From the NCBI GenBank assembly GCA_025455065.1, contig JALONG010000032.1, positions 1 through 50,968 on the forward strand: 50,968 nt of DNA, given 5' to 3'. The notes under the pieces are model-generated. The model searched no databases. It saw nothing but the letters and a program-made list of their open reading frames with translations, and was not told the origin of the DNA. This DNA is from Candidatus Kapaibacterium sp. Lineage in GTDB: Bacteria; Bacteroidota; Ignavibacteria; Kapaibacteriales; UBA4661. A program made the position numbers and the translations under genes. Numbering within the stretch: the stretch's first letter is position 1; every line of letters starts with the position of its first letter. This document shows positions 25,598-35,443 of the stretch, in pieces.

Positions 25598-27247
25598 TTA
25601 TCGAATAACGTGGAATGGTACTCTCACCGTTTCGTGTGGCGTTACAACAATGCAGGTGTATGTTCCTTGGGCAAATTGACTTAAAGGCTGCGTAAATCTG
25701 AACACGCCCGACTGATACTGACCATTGCAAATATCCGCCTGTTTGCGCCCCAGCATATCCACGATACTACACTCAATCGGCATTGTTTGAGACAAGGCAA
25801 TATTTACGGTGAGTTCATTGGAAGCAGGATTCGGATAAACCTTGGTTTCAACGCGATTACTTGTTATTTGCGTATCTTCAATACGCACCGAAACAGGAAC
25901 ACTACGAGCCTGCCGTGAGCAATTCACATCGTCCGTATCAAGGTCTAGCAAATACTCTATCGTGTACGTTCCTGTGCCTCTAAACCAAGCACTACCTTTG
26001 GGTGTAATTTCAAAAAACTCCGTTGCCTCAAGAAAGCCGTTCCTTACTGGGTATTCGCCGCTAATGTAGCGCCACCCGTGAGGCGAAAATGTCAAAACGG
26101 GTACACCGTTGATATAGGCATTAGCACGAGGATTAATGCCGTTTGAGCGAAATTTTTCTGCATTGATACGAAAAGAACCTGTGTAACGGATAGGCGTATT
26201 CGCAGTTATGGTAGAGGGTGATTGGAGTGTTGTTGCGATAGTGGTCAAGACCGTGCAATTATTTGTGGTCGCGCTAGGCATCGTTGCAGTAGCGTTTGTA
26301 GCAATCGTAATTGTGACTGGATTGCTCCGAAAAACTTTGCGACATTCACTCACGTCGTTGTCAGTAACAACACTATACTCAAAAGTGTACGTTCCTGCTC
26401 CTCGAAACCAAGCGCTATTTGCTGCAATGACCTGCATATTCTCCGTTGCTTCAAGAAAACCATTATTCATCGGGTATGTACCGCCCAGATATGCTAGACG
26501 ATTGGCACTATAAGCAGCACTACCACGCAGACCATTCCCACCGTTAATATGTATATATGATTGTGGATTTGTGCCACCACTACTAAACTGCGATGCCAGC
26601 ATACGAAAAAAGCCATCAAATCTAATTGGTGTGTTGAGATTTGTAATTACGGAAGGACCTGCTAATCGAGTTTCTACGGTGGCAATCGTTGTACACATAA
26701 CAAGCGTTGTTGCTGTCGTGGCAATCGAAAGCACTAATGGTGCGCTCCGAACAATTCTTCGGCAATTCAGTATATCATTATCCACCGCCAATACCCATTC
26801 GACGTAATACACACCTGCACCCTTGTACCATGCGCTGTTTTGTGGTGTTAATTCCCAATATTCCGTTCCTTCGATAAAACCTTCCAATTCGGGATAAATA
26901 CCTCCAATGCGCCGCAAACCGTTATTTTGCGCACCAATGAGCAATGAACCGTTGATATAGAAAGAGGCAGAAGGATTTTCAGCATTACCGCGAAAACGGT
27001 TTGCATTGATACGAAACGTTGTTTGCAAGCGCACAGGCGTTTGTGGGCTTGCCAGTGCAGTGGTTGTTTGAGTAAATACCCTCACGTTTGTTACTTGCGA
27101 ACACTGCTGTTGAGCATGGCACTCTTCTCCAAACCGGACTACAGCAAGGAGAACAGTTATTATCAGGGGTTTGATACACGATTGCATACTGAAACGGATA
27201 AATAGGAAAACACTACTTGGAGAAAATAAGGATAATTTGCTCATCAT
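25598..27247 (-). CDS. secreted three-repeat protein with T9SS C-terminal sorting domain
   Basis: About 549 residues. The secretion signal is the hydrophobic stretch PLIITVLLAVV before HAQQQ. Three homologous units of about 140 residues follow, each with NP..YING, a YP...GF.E.TE segment, a SAW[FY][RK]G[AT]G.Y..E core, a DND/DTDD..C pair and an R-S-x-P ending. The last 80 residues form a type A Por sorting domain: VYPNPASNELTVNI, DMLGRK, FAQGTY and a terminal basic strand. It is probably exported by T9SS and anchored or released. The start is uncertain: AGGAGT at 27251-27256 supports 27247 or 27244, while 27187 would give a shorter classical signal peptide. Confidence 0.87.
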   Translation of the reverse strand: MMSKLSLFSPSSVFLFIRFSMQSCIKPLIITVLLAVVRFGEECHAQQQCSQVTNVRVFTQTTTALASPQTPVRLQTTFRINANRFRGNAENPSASFYINGSLLIGAQNNGLRRIGGIYPELEGFIEGTEYWELTPQNSAWYKGAGVYYVEWVLAVDNDILNCRRIVRSAPLVLSIATTATTLVMCTTIATVETRLAGPSVITNLNTPIRFDGFFRMLASQFSSGGTNPQSYIHINGGNGLRGSAAYSANRLAYLGGTYPMNNGFLEATENMQVIAANSAWFRGAGTYTFEYSVVTDNDVSECRKVFRSNPVTITIATNATATMPSATTNNCTVLTTIATTLQSPSTITANTPIRYTGSFRINAEKFRSNGINPRANAYINGVPVLTFSPHGWRYISGEYPVRNGFLEATEFFEITPKGSAWFRGTGTYTIEYLLDLDTDDVNCSRQARSVPVSVRIEDTQITSNRVETKVYPNPASNELTVNIALSQTMPIECSIVDMLGRKQADICNGQYQSGVFRFTQPLSQFAQGTYTCIVVTPHETVRVPFHVIR

Positions 27248-27264
27248 CAAACTCCTGCTTTACA

Positions 27265-28806
27265 TTATTCTCCCTGAACAACAGCGTTGATAACACCACG
27301 TTCAATCAAATCCCGCACCGCTTCTACGTCGTCATAGACAACGCGATCAATCTCCATAAACGGCACTTTGGCGCGAATCGCCCCACGAACCGCTTCCAGA
27401 GCCACACTGGAGCGGAGCGGCTTCAGAAAATCCACACCCTGCGCGGCGCATAAAAGCTCAATCGCCAGCACACGCTCCAGATTTTGCACCACACGCCAGC
27501 CTTTTTGCGCAGCGATGCTGCCCATAGAATTATGGTCTTCCTGATTCGCACTCGTGGGAATGGAATCCACACTCGCCGGATGGCATAAAACCTTGTTTTC
27601 GGAGACAATCGAAGCGGCGGTGTACTGCGCAATCATCAACCCCGAATTTAAGCCGCCTTTGGGGGCGAGAAAGCGCGGAAGTCCTGATAACGCGCCGTTC
27701 ACAAGACGCTCAGTCCGACGCTCCGAGATATTGGCAAGTTCCGCGCAGGCAATCGCCAGAAAATCGAGTGCTAACGCGAGCGGCTGCCCGTGAAAATTTC
27801 CACCTTCCAAATGGACACCGTCCGCAGGATTATCGCCTTCAGGAAAAATAAGCGGATTGTCCGTCGCAGCATTGATTTCACGCTCAATCACCGACCGCAC
27901 ATAGCCGATAGCATCCCGCGAAGCCCCGTGAACTTGCGGCATACAGCGCAGCGAATACGCATCTTGCACACGATTGTCCACCGCCGCGTCGCGGTGCGAT
28001 TCTCTAATTTCGCTGCCTTGCATGAGATTCCGCAAGTTCTGTGCGGATTGTAGCTGCCCCGAAAAACCGCGTACTTTGTGCAAACGCTCGTCAAACGCCC
28101 TGTCCGTGCCGCGTAGAGCCTCTGCCGACAGCGCACCGGCGATGTCTGCGGTCTCGGAAAGTTGCAATGCTTTATGCACCGACAATGCCCCAAAAGCACA
28201 CATCATCTGCGTTCCGTTAATCATCGCCAAGCCCTCTTTAGCTTGCAAACGAATGGGTTTGATGCCGTGTTCAGCAAGCACATCGAATGAAGGCTTGATT
28301 GTACCTTCCTTTGTGAGGATACGCCCTTTGCCGATTGCAGCCAGCGCAATATGCGACAACTGCACCAAATCCCCGCTACTGCCCACAGAACCTTGCTCCG
28401 GCACGGCAGGAACGATGTCCGCATTGAGCATTTGCACTAATGTTTCGAGCGTTTCCACACGAATCCCCGAATAGCCCTTCGCAAGAGCATTGATGCGGAG
28501 CACCAGCATTGCCCGCACGAAATGGCGGGGTATCCACGCGCCAGCACCAACGCTGTGTGAAATAATCAAATTTTCCTGAAGCTGCTCCAAATCTTCCCGC
28601 GAAATCCGCACATTGGCAAACTCGCCAAAGCCTGTGGTGATGCCATAGACAGCCTCGTTGGATTCTACGTGATGCTCCACCACAGCGCGAGAGCGTTTTA
28701 CTGCCTGTTTTGCTTCGGAGCCAAGTTCTACGCGATGTTCAGGCGACGTAGCAATGCGGGCTACATCGTCCAGCGTGAGGGAATTTCCGTCGAGAAAGGT
28801 GGTCAT
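27265..28806 (-). CDS. hutH: histidine ammonia-lyase
   Basis: 513 residues, full length. It removes ammonia from histidine to give urocanate, the first step of histidine use. Landmarks are YGITTGFGEF (Tyr54), the MIO segment GSVGSSGDL (Ser143-Ser144-Gly145), NPL(I)FPEGD and the C-terminal SIPTSANQEDHNSMG. The first residue of the cofactor tripeptide is Ser, while classical enzymes have Ala-Ser-Gly; the central Ser and Gly are kept. The start ATG overlaps the stop of the methyltransferase gene upstream (ATGA). It is the last gene of the hut operon. Confidence 0.95.
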   Translation of the reverse strand: MTTFLDGNSLTLDDVARIATSPEHRVELGSEAKQAVKRSRAVVEHHVESNEAVYGITTGFGEFANVRISREDLEQLQENLIISHSVGAGAWIPRHFVRAMLVLRINALAKGYSGIRVETLETLVQMLNADIVPAVPEQGSVGSSGDLVQLSHIALAAIGKGRILTKEGTIKPSFDVLAEHGIKPIRLQAKEGLAMINGTQMMCAFGALSVHKALQLSETADIAGALSAEALRGTDRAFDERLHKVRGFSGQLQSAQNLRNLMQGSEIRESHRDAAVDNRVQDAYSLRCMPQVHGASRDAIGYVRSVIEREINAATDNPLIFPEGDNPADGVHLEGGNFHGQPLALALDFLAIACAELANISERRTERLVNGALSGLPRFLAPKGGLNSGLMIAQYTAASIVSENKVLCHPASVDSIPTSANQEDHNSMGSIAAQKGWRVVQNLERVLAIELLCAAQGVDFLKPLRSSVALEAVRGAIRAKVPFMEIDRVVYDDVEAVRDLIERGVINAVVQGE

Positions 28807-29747
28807 AATGCGTATTGTTTATTTTCCTGATTCCAGTTAATGGTAAATTGCTCTGTATCTCGCTTCTTTTCTTGCTTTTCGTGGTGCTGCGAAACGTGAT
28901 TTGCATCAAAATTACAAACCAATGCTTCGACCACTGAGCGCCTATTGTCAAGGTTTGGACCATTATGATAAAAATGGTCTTTGGTAACAATGTTAAACGT
29001 ATTCCAAAATTTTTGTATCATTTCATTCTCGCGCCACTCGTTGTGATGCCATGTTGAGAGGATAAATCGTGCTTTTGTTGCGCTCAAAAATTGGAATAAT
29101 GTTTCTTCATCGCGTTCCGTCCAACCGTTGTAGTAATCCACGTGCCGCCCGAAATATGGCGGGTCACAGTAGATAATGTCATCCTCATTGGCCAGAGCAA
29201 TGGTTTCTTCAAACGATTGGGTATGAAATTTCCAAGCGGGTTCGGGCTGTATAATGTGAGCAACACTGGCAACTTGGTTGGTGATTTTGGTAATGTAGGC
29301 TTGCGCAAAACGGTCAGGTTTTTTGCAAAAGGGAATATTCCAATTTCCTTTGCTTCCAAAGCGCATCATTCCGTTAAATCCGGCGCGGGAAAGGAAAATA
29401 AAATCAAACGGCGAAAATTCACCGCTATTAAAACGCGCCCGAACTTTCAAATAATGCTCGTAACCATTATTTTCTGCTGTGCGGAGCAGTTCTCCTTCTT
29501 GCTCAAGATACGTTCTCATTCGTGCAGCCGTTATTTCTTTTTGCTGCACTGCGCGATAAAAGCCGATGATATGCGGGTTCGTATCGCCAAGAATAGCACG
29601 TTTATAGCCTGCATTAAAGGCAACAACGCCTGTCCCCAAAAAAGGCTCAATCCATCTGCCTTTGACCTTTGGTGCAAGTTCCATAATCCAGGGAACAAGT
29701 TTCGTCTTGATGCCCTGACTTTTGATTGGAGGCACTACAACCCTCAT
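28803..29747 (-). CDS. Dam-family DNA adenine N6-methyltransferase, EcoRV-type
   Basis: A 314-residue alpha-class adenine methyltransferase. Motif X/I is in the N-terminus (PPIKSQGIKTKLVPWI, then FLGTG at 36-40 for AdoMet binding) and the catalytic motif IV DPPY is at 195-198. It should protect the site cut by the enzyme encoded directly upstream, predicted GATATC. The ATG at 29747 is used because it overlaps the endonuclease stop (ATGA) and begins the conserved domain. Its own stop TGA overlaps the hutH ATG, so it is fused translationally into the hut operon. No control (C) protein gene is present. Confidence 0.9.
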   Translation of the reverse strand: MRVVVPPIKSQGIKTKLVPWIMELAPKVKGRWIEPFLGTGVVAFNAGYKRAILGDTNPHIIGFYRAVQQKEITAARMRTYLEQEGELLRTAENNGYEHYLKVRARFNSGEFSPFDFIFLSRAGFNGMMRFGSKGNWNIPFCKKPDRFAQAYITKITNQVASVAHIIQPEPAWKFHTQSFEETIALANEDDIIYCDPPYFGRHVDYYNGWTERDEETLFQFLSATKARFILSTWHHNEWRENEMIQKFWNTFNIVTKDHFYHNGPNLDNRRSVVEALVCNFDANHVSQHHEKQEKKRDTEQFTINWNQENKQYAL

Positions 29748-30598
29748 AACTGCTCCTTTCTCGCACTTTTCGGCACAATCATTTCCCACAAATCGGTTCG
29801 CCCTTTGAACTCTAAAAAATCCTTCAGCGACGTGATTTTTACTGTCCTTCCGTCTTTTATCATCGTTGCAGAACCAAAGTTTATCCAATACTCATCAAAC
29901 CATTCCTCACCAAGTTGGCTAAACATACCGTTCTCAGCGCGTAAATCTTCGATACTCAGCATTGTACCGATGTTAGCGGTATTGCCTGAACCTTGCTTAT
30001 CACCTGCTATTTTCCACTTCTCCGCAGCAAAAAAATCAAAATTCCCAATGACCGAACTTATTGACTGCAAATCTTGAATGCGATAAACACGTGTTTCTGC
30101 TTGAACATCAGATGCAGCAATGATTCTGGAGTAGACAATACCCAAACAAAAATGACCGAGATAGTGATTGTACGGAAAGAGAATATTTTTGCTTTTGTCG
30201 CGCTCTTTGAAGTATGCACCATGACTGCCCAGTGTGAAAGCACACAAGCCATTTTCCTTGCGGTACGTGGTTTTTATATCAACAGCAAATTTTACTTCAT
30301 CATGTTTTTTGTGAACAAAGGTTATGTCGGGATAATAGTTTTGATGCGGTGCGAGGAGGATTTTGTAGCCAATTTCTTCTGCAAAACGTAGTAGGTGAGG
30401 GAAAATGTGTATCTCTAAAATTTTTGAGATGATTTTTGTATCGGATGAAATCGTGTAAACATTCTTGTAAATATCAATAAAACCTTTCACTGACCACTCG
30501 CCATTACCCGTAGAAATGACTTTCTCAAGTTCGCTTGAAAACGCCGTCAATCCTTGTTTGAAGGCTTGTTTGTGATGTGCTTTTTCGTTGGTATTCAT
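29744..30598 (-). CDS. type II restriction endonuclease, EcoRV family
   Basis: 284 residues (EcoRV has about 245). Comparing with EcoRV from memory: SDTK...E62, QNYYPD91 and VDIK (Asp107, Lys109) match its Glu45, Asp74, Asp90 and Lys92, with identical spacings of 29 and 16 residues. The recognition loop GSGNTANIG (203-211) matches GSGNTTNIG of EcoRV, and KW.IAGD before it is also kept. This supports cleavage of GATATC, with blunt ends as in EcoRV. The DNA is more A+T-rich than the hut genes on both sides. The gene starts 57 bp after hutG and overlaps the methyltransferase start by 4 bp. Confidence 0.92.
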   Translation of the reverse strand: MNTNEKAHHKQAFKQGLTAFSSELEKVISTGNGEWSVKGFIDIYKNVYTISSDTKIISKILEIHIFPHLLRFAEEIGYKILLAPHQNYYPDITFVHKKHDEVKFAVDIKTTYRKENGLCAFTLGSHGAYFKERDKSKNILFPYNHYLGHFCLGIVYSRIIAASDVQAETRVYRIQDLQSISSVIGNFDFFAAEKWKIAGDKQGSGNTANIGTMLSIEDLRAENGMFSQLGEEWFDEYWINFGSATMIKDGRTVKITSLKDFLEFKGRTDLWEMIVPKSARKEQL

Positions 30599-30655
30599 GT
30601 TTCAAAAAATTCGTAAAGTGTGCAAAAACTCTCCGCCAATCTACGAAAAAAATCT

Positions 30656-31678
30656 TTACGACATACGCCGACAAAAACCGCTCAAAAAGTGCATCACCAC
30701 AAGCGCAGCGAGTTTTGCCGTGCGGTTGTCCACATCAAAATTCGGGTTCACTTCCGCAATATCAATCATTCCAACATGAGTATTCATGCCACATTCAAAG
30801 GCTGCCTGCAAGATTTCCTCCGCAAAGAAGCCAGTCGGCGAAGGCGCACTCACGCCGGGCGCATCACTACTGCGCACAGCATCCATATCAAAACTGACCA
30901 TTGTGCGCTCCGTACCGTCCGCAGCAATCCGCAAAGCGCCTGCAAATGCAGGTGCAAAGCCATTTTTGCGGATTTCATCCAACATCATAATTCGTGTGCC
31001 CCGCTCCAGCATTGCCCTGTAATGCGCCTCCACATTGGCAAAGGGCTGTATGCCGAACTCAACTATGTTTTGCGGAGCAAGTACCGAAGCTGGTTCGTCT
31101 AGCATCAGGCGGAATGATGTGCCGCTATGCCGCATGGGAACAGCCAGACGATAATCCAAATGCGTGTCAATGTTCACCACGCCGACGCGCTTTGCGGTGC
31201 GGGAAAATCCGCGAAAATTTGGGTAAGAAATATCATGTCCACCGCCCAGAACGATAGGAATAATGCGGTGATCCATGAGTGTGGCAACAACAGTTTCCAA
31301 GCGGTCGTGTGTTTCTTCAAGTGTTTCGCCAAGCAGCACATCGCCCAGGTCGAAAATACGAAGACCGGAAAGCCGCTTATTTCCTGCTGCTGCGCTCATT
31401 TCATCCGGCACAAACGGCGTAAGTTTGTAGAGTGCGCGGCGAATTTCCGTTGGGGCTTTTTGTGCGCCTTCACGTCCTTTGTTCCGCTTCACGCCTTCGT
31501 CTTGTGGTACGCCGACAATCGCAACATCTATTGGGCTTTCTCGTGCTTTTTCCCAATCTTCACTCCTTCGCAAAACAATATCGCCCATGCGAATATCTTC
31601 CGCGTCATTGCGCGTAAAAAAGAGTTCCGGTGCGGGTTCGGTGAGAATAGTGCGTAATTGTGTGAGGGAAGTATTCAT
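30656..31678 (-). CDS. hutG: formimidoylglutamase, arginase/ureohydrolase fold
   Basis: 340 residues. It cleaves N-formimidoyl-L-glutamate to glutamate and formamide, the last hut step. Ureohydrolase metal-binding motifs are seen as GGGHDISYP, NIDTHLDYR and SFDMDAVRSSDAPG. The ATG at 31678 overlaps the hutI stop (TGATG); a TTG just upstream was not chosen. Assignment to formimidoylglutamase and not arginase or agmatinase rests on its place in the hut operon. Confidence 0.92.
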   Translation of the reverse strand: MNTSLTQLRTILTEPAPELFFTRNDAEDIRMGDIVLRRSEDWEKARESPIDVAIVGVPQDEGVKRNKGREGAQKAPTEIRRALYKLTPFVPDEMSAAAGNKRLSGLRIFDLGDVLLGETLEETHDRLETVVATLMDHRIIPIVLGGGHDISYPNFRGFSRTAKRVGVVNIDTHLDYRLAVPMRHSGTSFRLMLDEPASVLAPQNIVEFGIQPFANVEAHYRAMLERGTRIMMLDEIRKNGFAPAFAGALRIAADGTERTMVSFDMDAVRSSDAPGVSAPSPTGFFAEEILQAAFECGMNTHVGMIDIAEVNPNFDVDNRTAKLAALVVMHFLSGFCRRMS

Positions 31679-32940
31679 CAAACAATCACCTTTCCGTTGG
31701 TAATAATCTTCCCGTCTTTGATAACGTGCCGAATATGATTCATGCCAAAGTGATACGAGAGTTCGTAAAAATGCTCCACATCGGCAAGCAAAATATCCGC
31801 TTTTTTGCCGACTTCAAGGCTGCCGCGCTCGTGGGAAAGCATAAGTGCTGCTGCGCCATTCAGCGTTGCGGCGGTGAGTGCTTCTTCGGGAGTCATGCTC
31901 ATTTGCGTCGCAGCGAGCGTCATCATCATCGGCATAGAAAATGTCATGGATGAACCCGGGTTAAAATCCGTTGCCAGCGCAACCGCCCCGCCTGCATCAA
32001 TCAGGGCTCGCATGGGTGGATAGGGATGATTGAGGAACAACGACGCTCCGGGCAGTGCCGTTGCAATTGTCTCAGAAGCCCCAATAATACTTGCTCCTTC
32101 CAATGTCGTACATTCCAAGTGATCCACCGACACAGCACCCAAGCGTACTCCAAGCTGAGACGCGCCACTTGCCGAAAGCTGGTCAGCGTGAAGTTTTATC
32201 GGGAAGCCTAGATTCTGTGCGGCTTGCAAGATACGTTCCGCATCCTGAAGTGAGAAGTAATTCTGCTCACAAAAAATATCACAAAACACTGCCAAGCCGC
32301 GTTCTTTCACCGCCGGAAGCATTTCCTCGCAGACAATATCCACGTATTTCGCACGGTTTTCCCTATACTCCGGCGGAAAGGCGTGTGCGCCTAGAAACGT
32401 CGGTACAATCGTCATTGGGTGCGTTTTTTGCAATTCCCGAATCACTTCCAGTATCTTCAGTTCTGATGCGGCATCCAGACCATAGCCACTTTTGATTTCG
32501 GCGGTTGTTGTGCCGTGCAGAAGCATCGTGTCTAGGCGTTTTTTCGCAATGACGTAGAGTTCCTCGTGCGAGGCGTTGCGCGTGGCGGTCATCGTAGAAA
32601 TGATGCCACCTCCGGCTGCTGCAATTTCTTGATACGTTTTTCCGGCAGAGCGCATCGCAAATTCATTCGCCCGGTTGCCACCAAACACGGTATGCGTGTG
32701 CGAATCCACGAAGCCCGGAACTGCCGTCATTCCTTGCGCGTCGAGGGTTTGTGTACTTGGAGGCACATTGGCAAAAAAGTCTGTACTCTCACTAATGCGC
32801 GTAATGATGCCGTTTTCGACCACTATCGCCGCATTGGAGAGAGTTCGGATATTGCTCATTGCATTGCCTGAAAGCCGCTTTCTGTCTTGTGTTTCAGGTG
32901 TAGCGAGTGAGCCGATATTGTGAATGAGAAGTGAAGGCAT
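31678..32940 (-). CDS. hutI: imidazolonepropionase
   Basis: A 420-residue amidohydrolase-superfamily enzyme that opens imidazolone-5-propionate to N-formimidoylglutamate. Metal-site motif DSHTHTVFGG, then STMTATRNAS, KSGYGLD, FLGAHAFP, KLHADQLS, and DFNPGSSMT are characteristic of HutI. Length is normal. It is 16 bp downstream of the hydrolase gene and overlaps hutG by one base, consistent with one transcript. Confidence 0.95.
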   Translation of the reverse strand: MPSLLIHNIGSLATPETQDRKRLSGNAMSNIRTLSNAAIVVENGIITRISESTDFFANVPPSTQTLDAQGMTAVPGFVDSHTHTVFGGNRANEFAMRSAGKTYQEIAAAGGGIISTMTATRNASHEELYVIAKKRLDTMLLHGTTTAEIKSGYGLDAASELKILEVIRELQKTHPMTIVPTFLGAHAFPPEYRENRAKYVDIVCEEMLPAVKERGLAVFCDIFCEQNYFSLQDAERILQAAQNLGFPIKLHADQLSASGASQLGVRLGAVSVDHLECTTLEGASIIGASETIATALPGASLFLNHPYPPMRALIDAGGAVALATDFNPGSSMTFSMPMMMTLAATQMSMTPEEALTAATLNGAAALMLSHERGSLEVGKKADILLADVEHFYELSYHFGMNHIRHVIKDGKIITNGKVIV

Positions 32941-32956
32941 TGCGAGAAAATAGATA

Positions 32957-33769
32957 TTAACGAAGATTCAAAAACCGCATAACTTCTTGCACGGCAGCTT
33001 TTTTCACCGCTTCATTGCCGGAATCCGTGAAATCACCGTGTTTTGCATTGGGCAAGGTCGTAATAACGATGCCGTAGCGTTTCTGCTCGTCTGCGCTTGG
33101 TAATACGCCATTGTCGGCGGGAAAATCTGTACCGCGAAGCGAGAGAATACGCGGTTTCCGAACACGCAGAACAGGCATACGGCGGTGGTCGAAACTTATC
33201 ATTTCCGACACCATTTCAGGATGCGTTTTTGCGCAGAGCATCGAAATATCGCCGCCCATCGAATGACCAATCAGGACAAGCCGCTTCCAGTCATGCTTCA
33301 GAAATTGCTTGGGGAATTGCTTTTTTAGCCGCGCTTCCATAGTCTGGCGCACAAAGAGCAGGTTCTCTACACCCCGCTTCCATGCTGGCATTCGGAGTTC
33401 ATAGATATTTCCTTCTGTCGCAATCGGTTCATCATTCGGAAGTTCATGCTGCACCGAAAGTACGATGAAACCTCGCTCTGCAAGGCTATTGGCAATGAAC
33501 GAATAGCCACGGTGGCTCGTAGTATCTCGCTCACTATACCCCGCACTCAGCATCACAACACGGTTTGCAGGGCGTTGAACTTTTTTCGCAGCAGTGTACA
33601 TCTGCACTCCGATACGCCGACTTCGTGCGCTGTCATACACGGAAAGGCTTTCCGAAATAACCGAAGGCTGCGCTGATTGAGCAAATATGAGGCTTGTGGC
33701 GATAGTCCCCAGAACTGTTACCAAGAAAGTAAGCATTGAAGCGTGTTTCACAGAATTGTGCGATAACAT
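32957..33769 (-). CDS. exported alpha/beta hydrolase inside the hut operon
   Basis: 270 residues with an N-terminal signal or anchor segment (SMLTFLVTVLGTIATSLIF, then AQSAQ). The nucleophile elbow is GHSMGGD and the fold also shows VVMLSAGYSERDT as the oxyanion strand. A late Asp and His (NAKHGDF) could complete the triad. The nearest general resemblance is to lipase/PAF-acetylhydrolase-like esterases. No role in histidine breakdown is known for such a protein, and its place between hutU (12 bp) and hutI (16 bp) suggests co-expression only. Confidence 0.75.
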   Translation of the reverse strand: MLSHNSVKHASMLTFLVTVLGTIATSLIFAQSAQPSVISESLSVYDSARSRRIGVQMYTAAKKVQRPANRVVMLSAGYSERDTTSHRGYSFIANSLAERGFIVLSVQHELPNDEPIATEGNIYELRMPAWKRGVENLLFVRQTMEARLKKQFPKQFLKHDWKRLVLIGHSMGGDISMLCAKTHPEMVSEMISFDHRRMPVLRVRKPRILSLRGTDFPADNGVLPSADEQKRYGIVITTLPNAKHGDFTDSGNEAVKKAAVQEVMRFLNLR

Positions 33770-33781
33770 TTTGACAAAAAT

Positions 33782-35443
33782 TTAGAGCATCGGAATACGA
33801 ATACCACTCGTGCGAGCGTTATTCTGCGCTCTTTCGTAGCCTGCGTCGGCATGGCGCAAAATGCCCATCGTCGGGTCGTAGGTGAGAACACGCTCCAAAC
33901 GCCGCTCTGCTTCAGGGGTTCCGTCGGCAACAATCACCATGCCTGCATGGAGCGAATATCCCATGCCCACACCGCCGCCGTGATGCAGTGACACCCACGT
34001 CGCGCCGCCGACGGCATTGAGCGCAAAATTCAGATACACCCAATCCGCAATCGCATCCGAGCCGTCTTTCATTGCCTCTGTTTCGCGGTTCGGCGAAGCA
34101 ACTGAGCCACAATCCAAGTGGTCGCGCCCGATGACGAGCGGCGCAGAGACTTTGCCACTTGCTACGAGGTCGTTGAAAAGTTTTCCGGCTTTGGCGCGTT
34201 CACCGTATTTCAGCCAGCAAATACGCGCCGGAAGCCCTTGATACCGAAGGCTGTTCGATGCTTTGTCAATCCAACGATGCAGCGATTCGTTCTCCGGAAA
34301 CAATTCGCAAATAGCGCGATCTGTAATGGCGATGTCGTCAGGATTTCCCGACAATGCAACCCAGCGAAACGGACCGCTTCCGTCGCAAAAAAGCGGACGA
34401 ATAAACGCCGGGACAAAGCCCGGATAATCAAACGCATTCGCTACACCGTGTTCTTTTGCCACGCCGCGAAGGTTATTGCCGTAATCGAAGACCACTGCGC
34501 CTTTGCGCTGAAATTCAATCATTGCTTCGACGTGAGTGCAGATGGATTTATGGGCTTGGCGCAAGTATTCATCGGGGTTTGCGACGCGGAGCGCATCAGC
34601 ACTTGCCTTCGACGTTCCGGCAGGATAATAGCCGTTAAGCGGGTCGTGGGCGGAGGTTTGGTCGGTGATGACATCAGGCGTGATGCCACGCCGAAGCAGT
34701 TCCGGCAGAATTTCCGCAGCGTTGCCCAGAAGCCCCACGGATATTGGCGTTTTGTCTGCAACGTGCTTCCGAATGAGTTCCAGTGCCTCATCCAGACTTG
34801 TTGCTTTCGCGTCGCAATAGCGGTCGTGAATACGTTTATCTATGCGGGTTTCGTCAATTTCGATACAGAGCGTCGCTGCGCCGTTGAAGGTGGCAGCAAG
34901 CGGCTGTGCGCCTCCCATGCCGCCTAAGCCCGCCGTCAGTACGAACTTCCCTGCGAGTGTGCCGCCAAAGTGCTGCCGTGCGCACTCGGCAAAGGTTTCG
35001 TAGGTGCCTTGCAAAATGCCTTGTGTGCCAATGTAAATCCAGCTTCCGGCGGTCATCTGCCCGTACATCATCAATCCCAAAGCGTCCAAACGCCGGAATT
35101 CGTCCCATGTTGCCCACTTCGGCACAAGATTGGAATTTGCCAATATCACGCGGGGCGCGTCGGTGTGGGTTTTGACAATGCCAACAGGTTTGCCGGATTG
35201 CACAAGCAAGGTATCATCGGGGTTCATGGACTTGAGCGCATCCAAAATCGCATCAAAACTTGCCCAATTCCGCGCCGCCTTTCCCAAGCCACCGTAAACG
35301 ATAAGCTGTTCGGGATGCTCGGCGACCTCGGGGTCGAGATTGTTTTGAATCATGCGGTATGCAGCTTCGAGTTGCCAATTTTTGCAGGTAAGTTCGCTTC
35401 CACGCGGAGCGCGGACGGTACGGGAGGAAACAGGGAGAGACAT
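33782..35443 (-). CDS. hutU: urocanate hydratase
   Basis: 553 residues, the normal length. It hydrates urocanate to imidazolonepropionate using tightly bound NAD as an electrophile. Landmarks are [11 protein letters not shown], the dinucleotide-region [32 protein letters not shown] and [14 protein letters not shown]. It is the first gene of the operon hutU-hydrolase-hutI-hutG-R-M-hutH. AGGG about 7 bp upstream of the ATG may serve as ribosome-binding site. Confidence 0.96.

What the first reader, a model, noticed from the sequence alone, without database searches (positions are those of the whole stretch)
28803..30598. EcoRV-family restriction-modification system embedded in the histidine-utilisation operon
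The endonuclease matches EcoRV at all catalytic residues with identical spacings (Glu62-29-Asp91-16-Asp107-x-Lys109) and in the base-reading loop GSGNTANIG. The genes run R then M, are coupled by ATGA, and the methyltransferase is coupled to hutH by a second ATGA. R-M expression would then follow histidine use, and any loss of the methyltransferase end would damage hutH. No controller gene is present, so the operon may provide the control.
Basis: partly seen in the sequence, partly recalled or inferred. Interest (0 to 1): 0.8.

Follow-up and report, generated by a model that had tools for sequence, protein, structure and literature searches.

The report
EcoRV-type restriction-modification pair inside hut operon
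A two-gene DNA-cutting and DNA-protecting system of the well-known EcoRV kind has inserted between two histidine-degradation genes of this bacterium; the genes are intact and probably working, but the position looks like a chance landing rather than a new way of controlling them.

Summary
R is EcoRV family (PF09233 347 bits; EcoRV E 8e-39; fold) with catalytic and most base-reading residues invariant in 39 aligned sequences. M's best match among 72,556 plasmids is the methyltransferase beside EcoRV, 56% identical. Congeners G001, G007 and G003 have hutG followed by hutH without R-M: a lineage-specific insertion. Both genes group with mainly Bacteroidota pairs, not with the EcoRV systems of congeners. 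R-then-M tight coupling is the family norm, and 7 of 34 scorable relatives also sit in same-strand gene runs, one between pyrB and pyrC. Histidine control is unsupported: no HutP, and no HutC above cut-off. By-product: the genome avoids palindromes extremely (median observed/expected 0.26, GATATC 0.07), but congeners without an EcoRV gene avoid GATATC too, so this does not prove activity.

The parts
29744..30598 (-). R: EcoRV-family type II restriction endonuclease, 284 aa; E62, D91, D107, K109 catalytic; R-loop 203-211
   Evidence: PF09233 347 bits; phmmer to EcoRV chains E 8e-39; model pLDDT 85.7, Foldseek to EcoRV E 7.9e-19; invariant residues
28803..29747 (-). M: Dam-family (D12) adenine-N6 methyltransferase, 314 aa, DPPY at 195, M.EcoRV type
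   Evidence: PF02086 149 bits; TIGR00571 179 bits over cut-off 114.85; PADLOC MTase_II 394 bits; 56% identical to the methyltransferase beside EcoRV on E. coli plasmids; motif position
29744..29747 (-). ATGA overlap of R stop and M start
   Evidence: sequence
28803..28806 (-). ATGA overlap of M stop and hutH start
   Evidence: sequence
30599..30655 (-). 57-nt gap between hutG stop and R start, GC 0.33; no promoter- or terminator-like site of this strand listed inside it
27265..28806 (-). hutH, histidine ammonia-lyase, intact, 513 aa
   Evidence: TIGR01225 678.6 bits
30656..31681 (-). hutG-like formimidoylglutamase (arginase family)
   Evidence: TIGR01227 211.3 bits, under cut-off 229.15; PF00491 over cut-off
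31678..32940 (-). hutI, imidazolonepropionase
   Evidence: TIGR01224 456.8 bits
32957..33769 (-). esterase-like alpha/beta hydrolase, a second extra gene in the run; no match at E 1e-8 in the hut regions of G001 and G007
33782..35443 (-). hutU, urocanate hydratase
   Evidence: TIGR01228 929.7 bits

Best explanation
This is a horizontally acquired, compact type II restriction-modification cassette of the EcoRV kind. R cuts unmethylated DNA, most likely at GATATC, and M methylates an adenine of the same site to protect the cell's own DNA. The cassette, R then M with no controller gene, landed between hutG and hutH in this lineage, in the direction of the operon. With no recognisable promoter or terminator in the gap, it is most likely transcribed at least partly by read-through from hut, M being made by coupling to R, and hutH now read after M. 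The place is best seen as a tolerated landing site, not an evolved histidine switch. Shown: gene identities, overlaps, absence of the insert in three congeners, foreign affinity of both genes. Inferred: activity, the site GATATC, co-transcription, translational coupling.
For: EcoRV family by Pfam, sequence and fold; catalytic and most recognition residues invariant in 39 sequences. M is 56% identical over 93% to the methyltransferase beside EcoRV. Empty sites: hutG-hutH spacers of 127, 53 and 7 nt in G001, G007 and G003. The nearest 41 loci (L002-L042) have R at 60-67% and M at 70-79% (L017, a 22-residue piece of M, aside), against 53-57% and 49-54% for the EcoRV pairs of G001, G004, G006 and G009; both trees agree. 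GC is 0.40 in R and 0.43 in M against 0.51-0.55 in hutH, hutG, hutI and hutU. M lies just 3' of R on the same strand in 79 of 80 relatives. 7 of 34 scorable relatives lie in same-strand runs within 100 nt on both sides, one between pyrB and pyrC. GATATC: 8 found, 108.6 expected in 344,776 sampled bases, while CATATG, AATATT and TATATA run at 0.45-0.55; 143 sites in the whole genome.
Against: No methylation, transcript or enzyme data. GATATC is also avoided in congeners where no EcoRV gene was found (G005 0.14, G007 0.27), so the avoidance probably predates this insertion and does not prove this copy active. Sixteen of 51 testable palindromes are below 0.1 here, and the tool's own control word CTATAG is rarer still (77 against 143), so GATATC is not singular. 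R lacks, between residues 178 and 179, 22 residues that L002 has and 27 that L005 has; relatives without them exist (L051, L055, L080). Model confidence is low at the R-loop (residues 201-210, pLDDT 56), at 161-170 (61) and at 81-90 (69). Tree supports around the window are uneven: R 0.80, 0.55, 0.89; M 0.85, 1.0, 0.14, 0.98, and the wider clade holds MAGs labelled Chlorobiota and Desulfobulbaceae too. A weak terminator-like hairpin lies in the end of hutG.
Confidence: 0.82

Rival explanations
1. The operon is the control: R-M is made only when histidine is used, replacing a controller protein, and the M-hutH coupling was selected because it makes loss of M costly.
For: Tight gene order hutG-57 nt-R-ATGA-M-ATGA-hutH; no controller gene; no promoter-like site of this strand in the gap.
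Against: No HutP match and no HutC match above cut-off in the genome; insert absent in 3 of 3 congeners with a readable junction; the R-then-M pair with nothing between is the family norm wherever it sits; relatives sit among unrelated genes.
Confidence: 0.1
2. The pair works but reads a different site from GATATC, or R is inactive and M acts alone.
For: One change in the R-loop (T187 to A208) against EcoRV; a 22-27 residue gap against near relatives.
Against: A208 is invariant in the 39 aligned sequences and the other reading residues are kept; both frames are intact; M is closest on plasmids to the EcoRV methyltransferase.
Confidence: 0.13
3. R-M has its own promoter near the 57-nt gap and hutH is read from a promoter inside M; the operon position has no regulatory effect.
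For: Two sigma-70-like minus-strand sites lie inside M (28990-28962, 29182-29153) and one inside hutG (31287-31260); a weak terminator-like hairpin lies in the end of hutG (30711-30694).
Against: Promoter-like sites are about as frequent as in shuffles (11 against 9.1, sd 3.0), and so are terminator-like ones (14 against 10.4, sd 3.6); no Bacteroidota-type TTTG/TAnnTTTG site (motif recalled) in the region. The promoter type of this organism is unknown to me, so this is weak.
Confidence: 0.3
4. Assembly error joining an R-M fragment into the hut region.
For: The genome is a 131-contig draft; reads are not available.
Against: The insert lies inside a 51-kb contig; hutG and hutH are intact on either side and match the congeners' order.
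Confidence: 0.02

Closest known systems
EcoRV R-M system of E. coli plasmids (pEC159, NC_019982)
   Same: R homologous (31.9% over 94%), M 56% identical over 93%; same catalytic residues and nearly the same reading loop
   Different: There M is divergent from a helix-turn-helix gene that overlaps R; here R and M are in tandem, R first, with no such gene, and the pair lies inside hut
EcoRV-family pair of Rhodothermus marinus plasmid pRMAR01 (NC_013502)
   Same: R then M on one strand with a 4-nt overlap, no gene between; R 52.5%, M 53.8% identical
   Different: Plasmid-borne, upstream of annotated helicase and restriction subunit S genes, not in a metabolic operon
R-M pairs of Bacteroidota such as Spirosoma lacussanchae, Runella and Bacteroidota SSA2 (L004, L005, L002)
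   Same: Among the closest by identity; L002 and L005 group with the window in both trees (L004 not in the trees); R then M, gap 3 nt
   Different: Other neighbours; L002 and L005 have 22 and 27 extra residues in R
Puniceicoccaceae LCM1.Bin39 pair (L078)
   Same: EcoRV-type R-M inside a metabolic gene run, pyrB-R-M-pyrC, gaps 28 and 21 nt (names)
   Different: Different operon and lineage; no overlap with the downstream gene

Membership tests
EcoRV-family type II restriction endonuclease (PF09233) | Profile match over the curated cut-off | tested here: met
   347 bits against 25, positions 2-244 of 244
EcoRV-family type II restriction endonuclease (PF09233) | Catalytic E45, D74, D90, K92 (EcoRV numbering, roles recalled) | tested here: met
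   E62, D91, D107, K109 align and are invariant in 39 sequences
EcoRV-family type II restriction endonuclease (PF09233) | EcoRV fold | tested here: met
   Model pLDDT 85.7; the 39 PDB matches with E<=0.001 are all EcoRV entries, TM on target 0.74-0.86
EcoRV-family type II restriction endonuclease (PF09233) | Cleavage at GATATC | not testable with these tools
   Needs enzyme assay; recognition loop kept except T187 to A
M.EcoRV-type adenine methyltransferase | D12/Dam family with DPPY, closest to the methyltransferase beside EcoRV | tested here: met
   PF02086, TIGR00571 over cut-off; DPPY at 195; top plasmid match 56%. Closeness was judged against plasmid records; chromosomal Bacteroidota homologs are closer
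M.EcoRV-type adenine methyltransferase | N6-methyladenine in GATATC in the cell | not testable with these tools
   No read-level data
Controller-regulated EcoRV system | Helix-turn-helix controller gene overlapping R | tested here: not met
   No gene between hutG and R or R and M; present in pEC159
Histidine-regulated operon member | Known hut regulator (HutC or HutP) in the genome | tested here: not met
   HutC model best 36.5 bits under cut-off 220; HutP no match; other regulators not searched
Histidine-regulated operon member | Co-transcription with hut and response to histidine | not testable with these tools
   Needs transcripts

The most novel reading that the evidence does not exclude
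In this genus the genome has become so poor in palindromes (143 GATATC sites, about 1,770 expected) that a restriction pair with R first and no controller can settle almost anywhere, including inside a working catabolic operon; the host operon then supplies its expression, and the shared M-hutH codon makes clean loss of the protective gene costly. Earlier rounds of restriction would thus have prepared the genome for later ones.
Probability: 0.12. Interest if true: 0.6.

Novelty: new member of a known kind. Interest (0 to 1): 0.35.

Why it matters
It is a clean case of a restriction-modification pair inside a metabolic operon with empty sites in congeners, so the effect of the landing on both systems can be tested. 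The wider result, that the carrier genome is depleted of most palindromic six-base words while a congener without matches to three methyltransferase families is not, offers a natural contrast for how restriction shapes genomes, though one genome of the order (G018) with many methyltransferases shows little avoidance in a small sample.

Tried and rejected
A target duplication or inverted repeats at the ends of the insert: the repeats found in 27000-32500 are short and I saw none that frames the insert, so no mobility signature is claimed. Bacteroidota-type promoters: two in the whole window, none near, no more than in shuffles. A second hut-linked case: L029 holds a urocanase-like gene 3.6 kb from R, but its neighbours are prolyl-tRNA synthetase and a TPR protein, so this is not a hut operon. 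An altered HutH active site: the GSVGSSGDL motif is the same in the 30 loci examined, the window's own included. Dating the insertion by palindrome content: R-M has 11 palindromes against 30 expected (0.37), about like the rest of the window (0.32), but R-M genes of 17 relatives are low too (0.35-0.78), so nothing follows. The M tail (last 6-7 residues) may read into the former hutH leader; the likeness to the G001 spacer is too short to claim. GATATC avoidance as proof of activity: dropped, because G005 and G007, with no EcoRV-family match, avoid the site too. A paper holding R-M and hutH together (PMC4447125, passages) describes them as separate modules, not an embedded pair.

Counting notes: I retyped 66 of the 80 rows; 13 lacked a neighbour or M, and L043, whose R frame is broken, I left out by hand, so an R-M gap within 20 nt is 65 of 67 (exceptions L043 and L081). 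One upstream length (L075) was miskeyed there without effect on any count. My gene caller is crude (longest frames), so 7 of 34 is approximate; one of the seven (L056) rests on a 47-nt overlap. The spacer lengths in my notebook (128/57/17) were first estimates; one search gives 127, 53 and 7 nt. The protein alignment used 38 chosen relatives and the trees 31 sequences, out of 80 loci and the hits; G006 is in neither, because my caller found no R frame there.
Full report
Observation. All coordinates hold. On the minus strand the order is hutU (33782-35443), an esterase-like gene (32957-33769), hutI (31678-32940), hutG (30656-31681), R (29744-30598), M (28803-29747), hutH (27265-28806). R and M share ATGA at 29744-29747; M and hutH share ATGA at 28803-28806. 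The window is one whole contig of a 5.61-Mb, 131-contig genome, 99.5% complete.

What R and M are. R matches PF09233 at 347 bits and EcoRV chains of the PDB at E 8e-39. The modelled structure (pLDDT 85.7, pTM 0.85) has 39 PDB matches at E<=0.001, all EcoRV entries; the R-loop itself is modelled with low confidence (pLDDT 56). E62, D91, D107 and K109 stand where EcoRV has E45, D74, D90 and K92, and GSGNTANIG where EcoRV has GSGNTTNIG. These catalytic residues, and all of the loop except G205 (nearly invariant), are invariant in the window and 38 chosen relatives. M is a Dam-family D12 methyltransferase. Of 72,556 plasmid records its best match is the methyltransferase beside EcoRV on E. coli plasmids, 56.0% over 93%, whereas R is 31.9% identical to EcoRV.

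Arrangement in the family. The genome scan for R confirmed 181 stretches and kept the best 80. M lies just downstream on the same strand in 79 of 80; on the remaining contig (L048) no M was found, R lying about 100 nt from the contig end. The R-M gap is within 20 nt in 65 of the 67 loci with both neighbours called (see counting notes). So R first with nothing between is the norm. On the E. coli plasmid, by contrast, M is divergent from a helix-turn-helix gene that overlaps R. I did not test the 80 loci for a controller gene elsewhere.

Insertion. Seven congeners were in the set (G001-G007). G001 and G007 have hutU-hutI-hutG-hutH, and G003 has hutG-hutH at a contig start, with no R-M between; spacers are 127, 53 and 7 nt. 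hutH identities are 87%, 87% and 77%. In G004 hutH follows a transporter-like gene, not hutG (named by eye); in G002 it lies on a 3.1-kb contig without a hutG match; G005 and G006 gave only weak hutH matches. Thus 3 of 3 congeners with a readable hutG-hutH junction are empty. GC is 0.40 in R and 0.43 in M against 0.51-0.55 in hutH, hutG, hutI and hutU. G001, G004, G006 and the same-family G009 carry EcoRV-type pairs elsewhere, 53-57% (R) and 49-54% (M) identical to the window's, whereas the nearest 41 loci, mainly Bacteroidota, have 60-67% and 70-79%. Both trees put the window pair with these and away from G001, G004 and G009. Supports on the path from the window are 0.80, 0.55 and 0.89 for R and 0.85, 1.0, 0.14 and 0.98 for M; the wider clade also holds MAGs labelled Chlorobiota and Desulfobulbaceae. 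The organism is probably a relative of Candidatus Kapaibacterium: the G009 contig agrees with record JANYIG010000070 in length and gene coordinates.

Is the operon position special? Of 34 relatives with both neighbours of at least 120 aa, 7 lie in same-strand runs with gaps of at most 100 nt on both sides. In a Puniceicoccaceae genome the pair lies between pyrB and pyrC. In Moraxella oblonga (L051) and an Anaerolineaceae genome (L067) the downstream gene, as my caller draws it, also overlaps M by 4 nt. A published introduction lists operons among the places where R-M genes occur (PMC3031569, passages). A search for R-M with hut terms gave one paper, whose passages describe separate modules (PMC4447125); one for R-M embedded among metabolic genes gave one paper, seen as a listing only; broader searches were seen mostly as listings. 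Subscription papers are not covered, and a 2010 study that I recalled was not held. So I do not claim that no R-M in hut has been described.

Regulation. The genome gave no HutP match and no HutC match above cut-off (best 36.5 of 220 bits). No promoter- or terminator-like site of the minus strand is listed in 30599-30655, but a weak terminator-like hairpin lies in the end of hutG (30711-30694), and such sites are about as frequent as in shuffles over the scanned region. Read-through from hut is therefore likely but unproven, and histidine dependence is a guess.

Palindromes. In 344,776 sampled bases GATATC occurs 8 times against 108.6 expected from its five- and four-base parts; CATATG, AATATT and TATATA stand at 0.45-0.55. 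The whole genome has 143 sites, about 1,768 expected by extrapolation. But the median of palindromic six-mers is itself 0.26 against 1.0 for non-palindromes, 16 of 51 testable ones are below 0.1, and the control word CTATAG occurs only 77 times. G005 (no EcoRV-family match) has GATATC at 0.14, G007 (none) 0.27, G006 (carrier) 0.15, G003 (none) 0.88. G003 has no match to three methyltransferase families, where G000 has 3, 6 and 10 matches (some genes give two). Against a simple relation, G018 has 3, 2 and 10 matches but palindromes at 0.73 of the composition expectation in 12.8 kb, while G004 has 1, 1 and 4 matches and 0.38 in 32 kb. Site avoidance grows with residence time and is found also without the system (PMC4687349, passages including part of the abstract). 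Since this insertion is absent in the readable congeners while the avoidance is shared, the avoidance mostly predates it.

Verdict. An intact, probably functional EcoRV-type pair, horizontally acquired and inserted in hut. It is a new member of a known kind; the regulatory reading is not supported.

Noticed in passing
whole genome G000 (sampled 344,776 bases: L139-L158 and window): Extreme avoidance of palindromic six-base words: median observed/expected 0.26, 16 of 51 below 0.1; also GGCC 0.03 and GATC 0.09 among four-base palindromes. Medians are 0.26 in G005 and 0.30 in G006, 0.19-0.36 in small samples of G001, G004 and G009, 0.47 in G007 and 0.86 in G003, which has no match to three methyltransferase families. 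G018, with many matches, shows little avoidance in 12.8 kb.
   Followed up: partly
window 32957-33769: An esterase-like gene between hutU and hutI with no match at E 1e-8 in the hut regions of G001 and G007: a second extra gene in the same operon.
   Followed up: no
L078:483-4700: EcoRV-type R-M between pyrB and pyrC in a Puniceicoccaceae genome.
   Followed up: partly
L126:2365-5283: In congener G004 hutH stands behind a transporter-like gene instead of hutG.
   Followed up: no
L042, L051, L071, L034: Loci of other genomes with EcoRV-type pairs that are also poor in palindromes, 0.46-0.50 of the composition expectation, among 56 loci of at least 9 kb that span 0.39-1.05.
   Followed up: no
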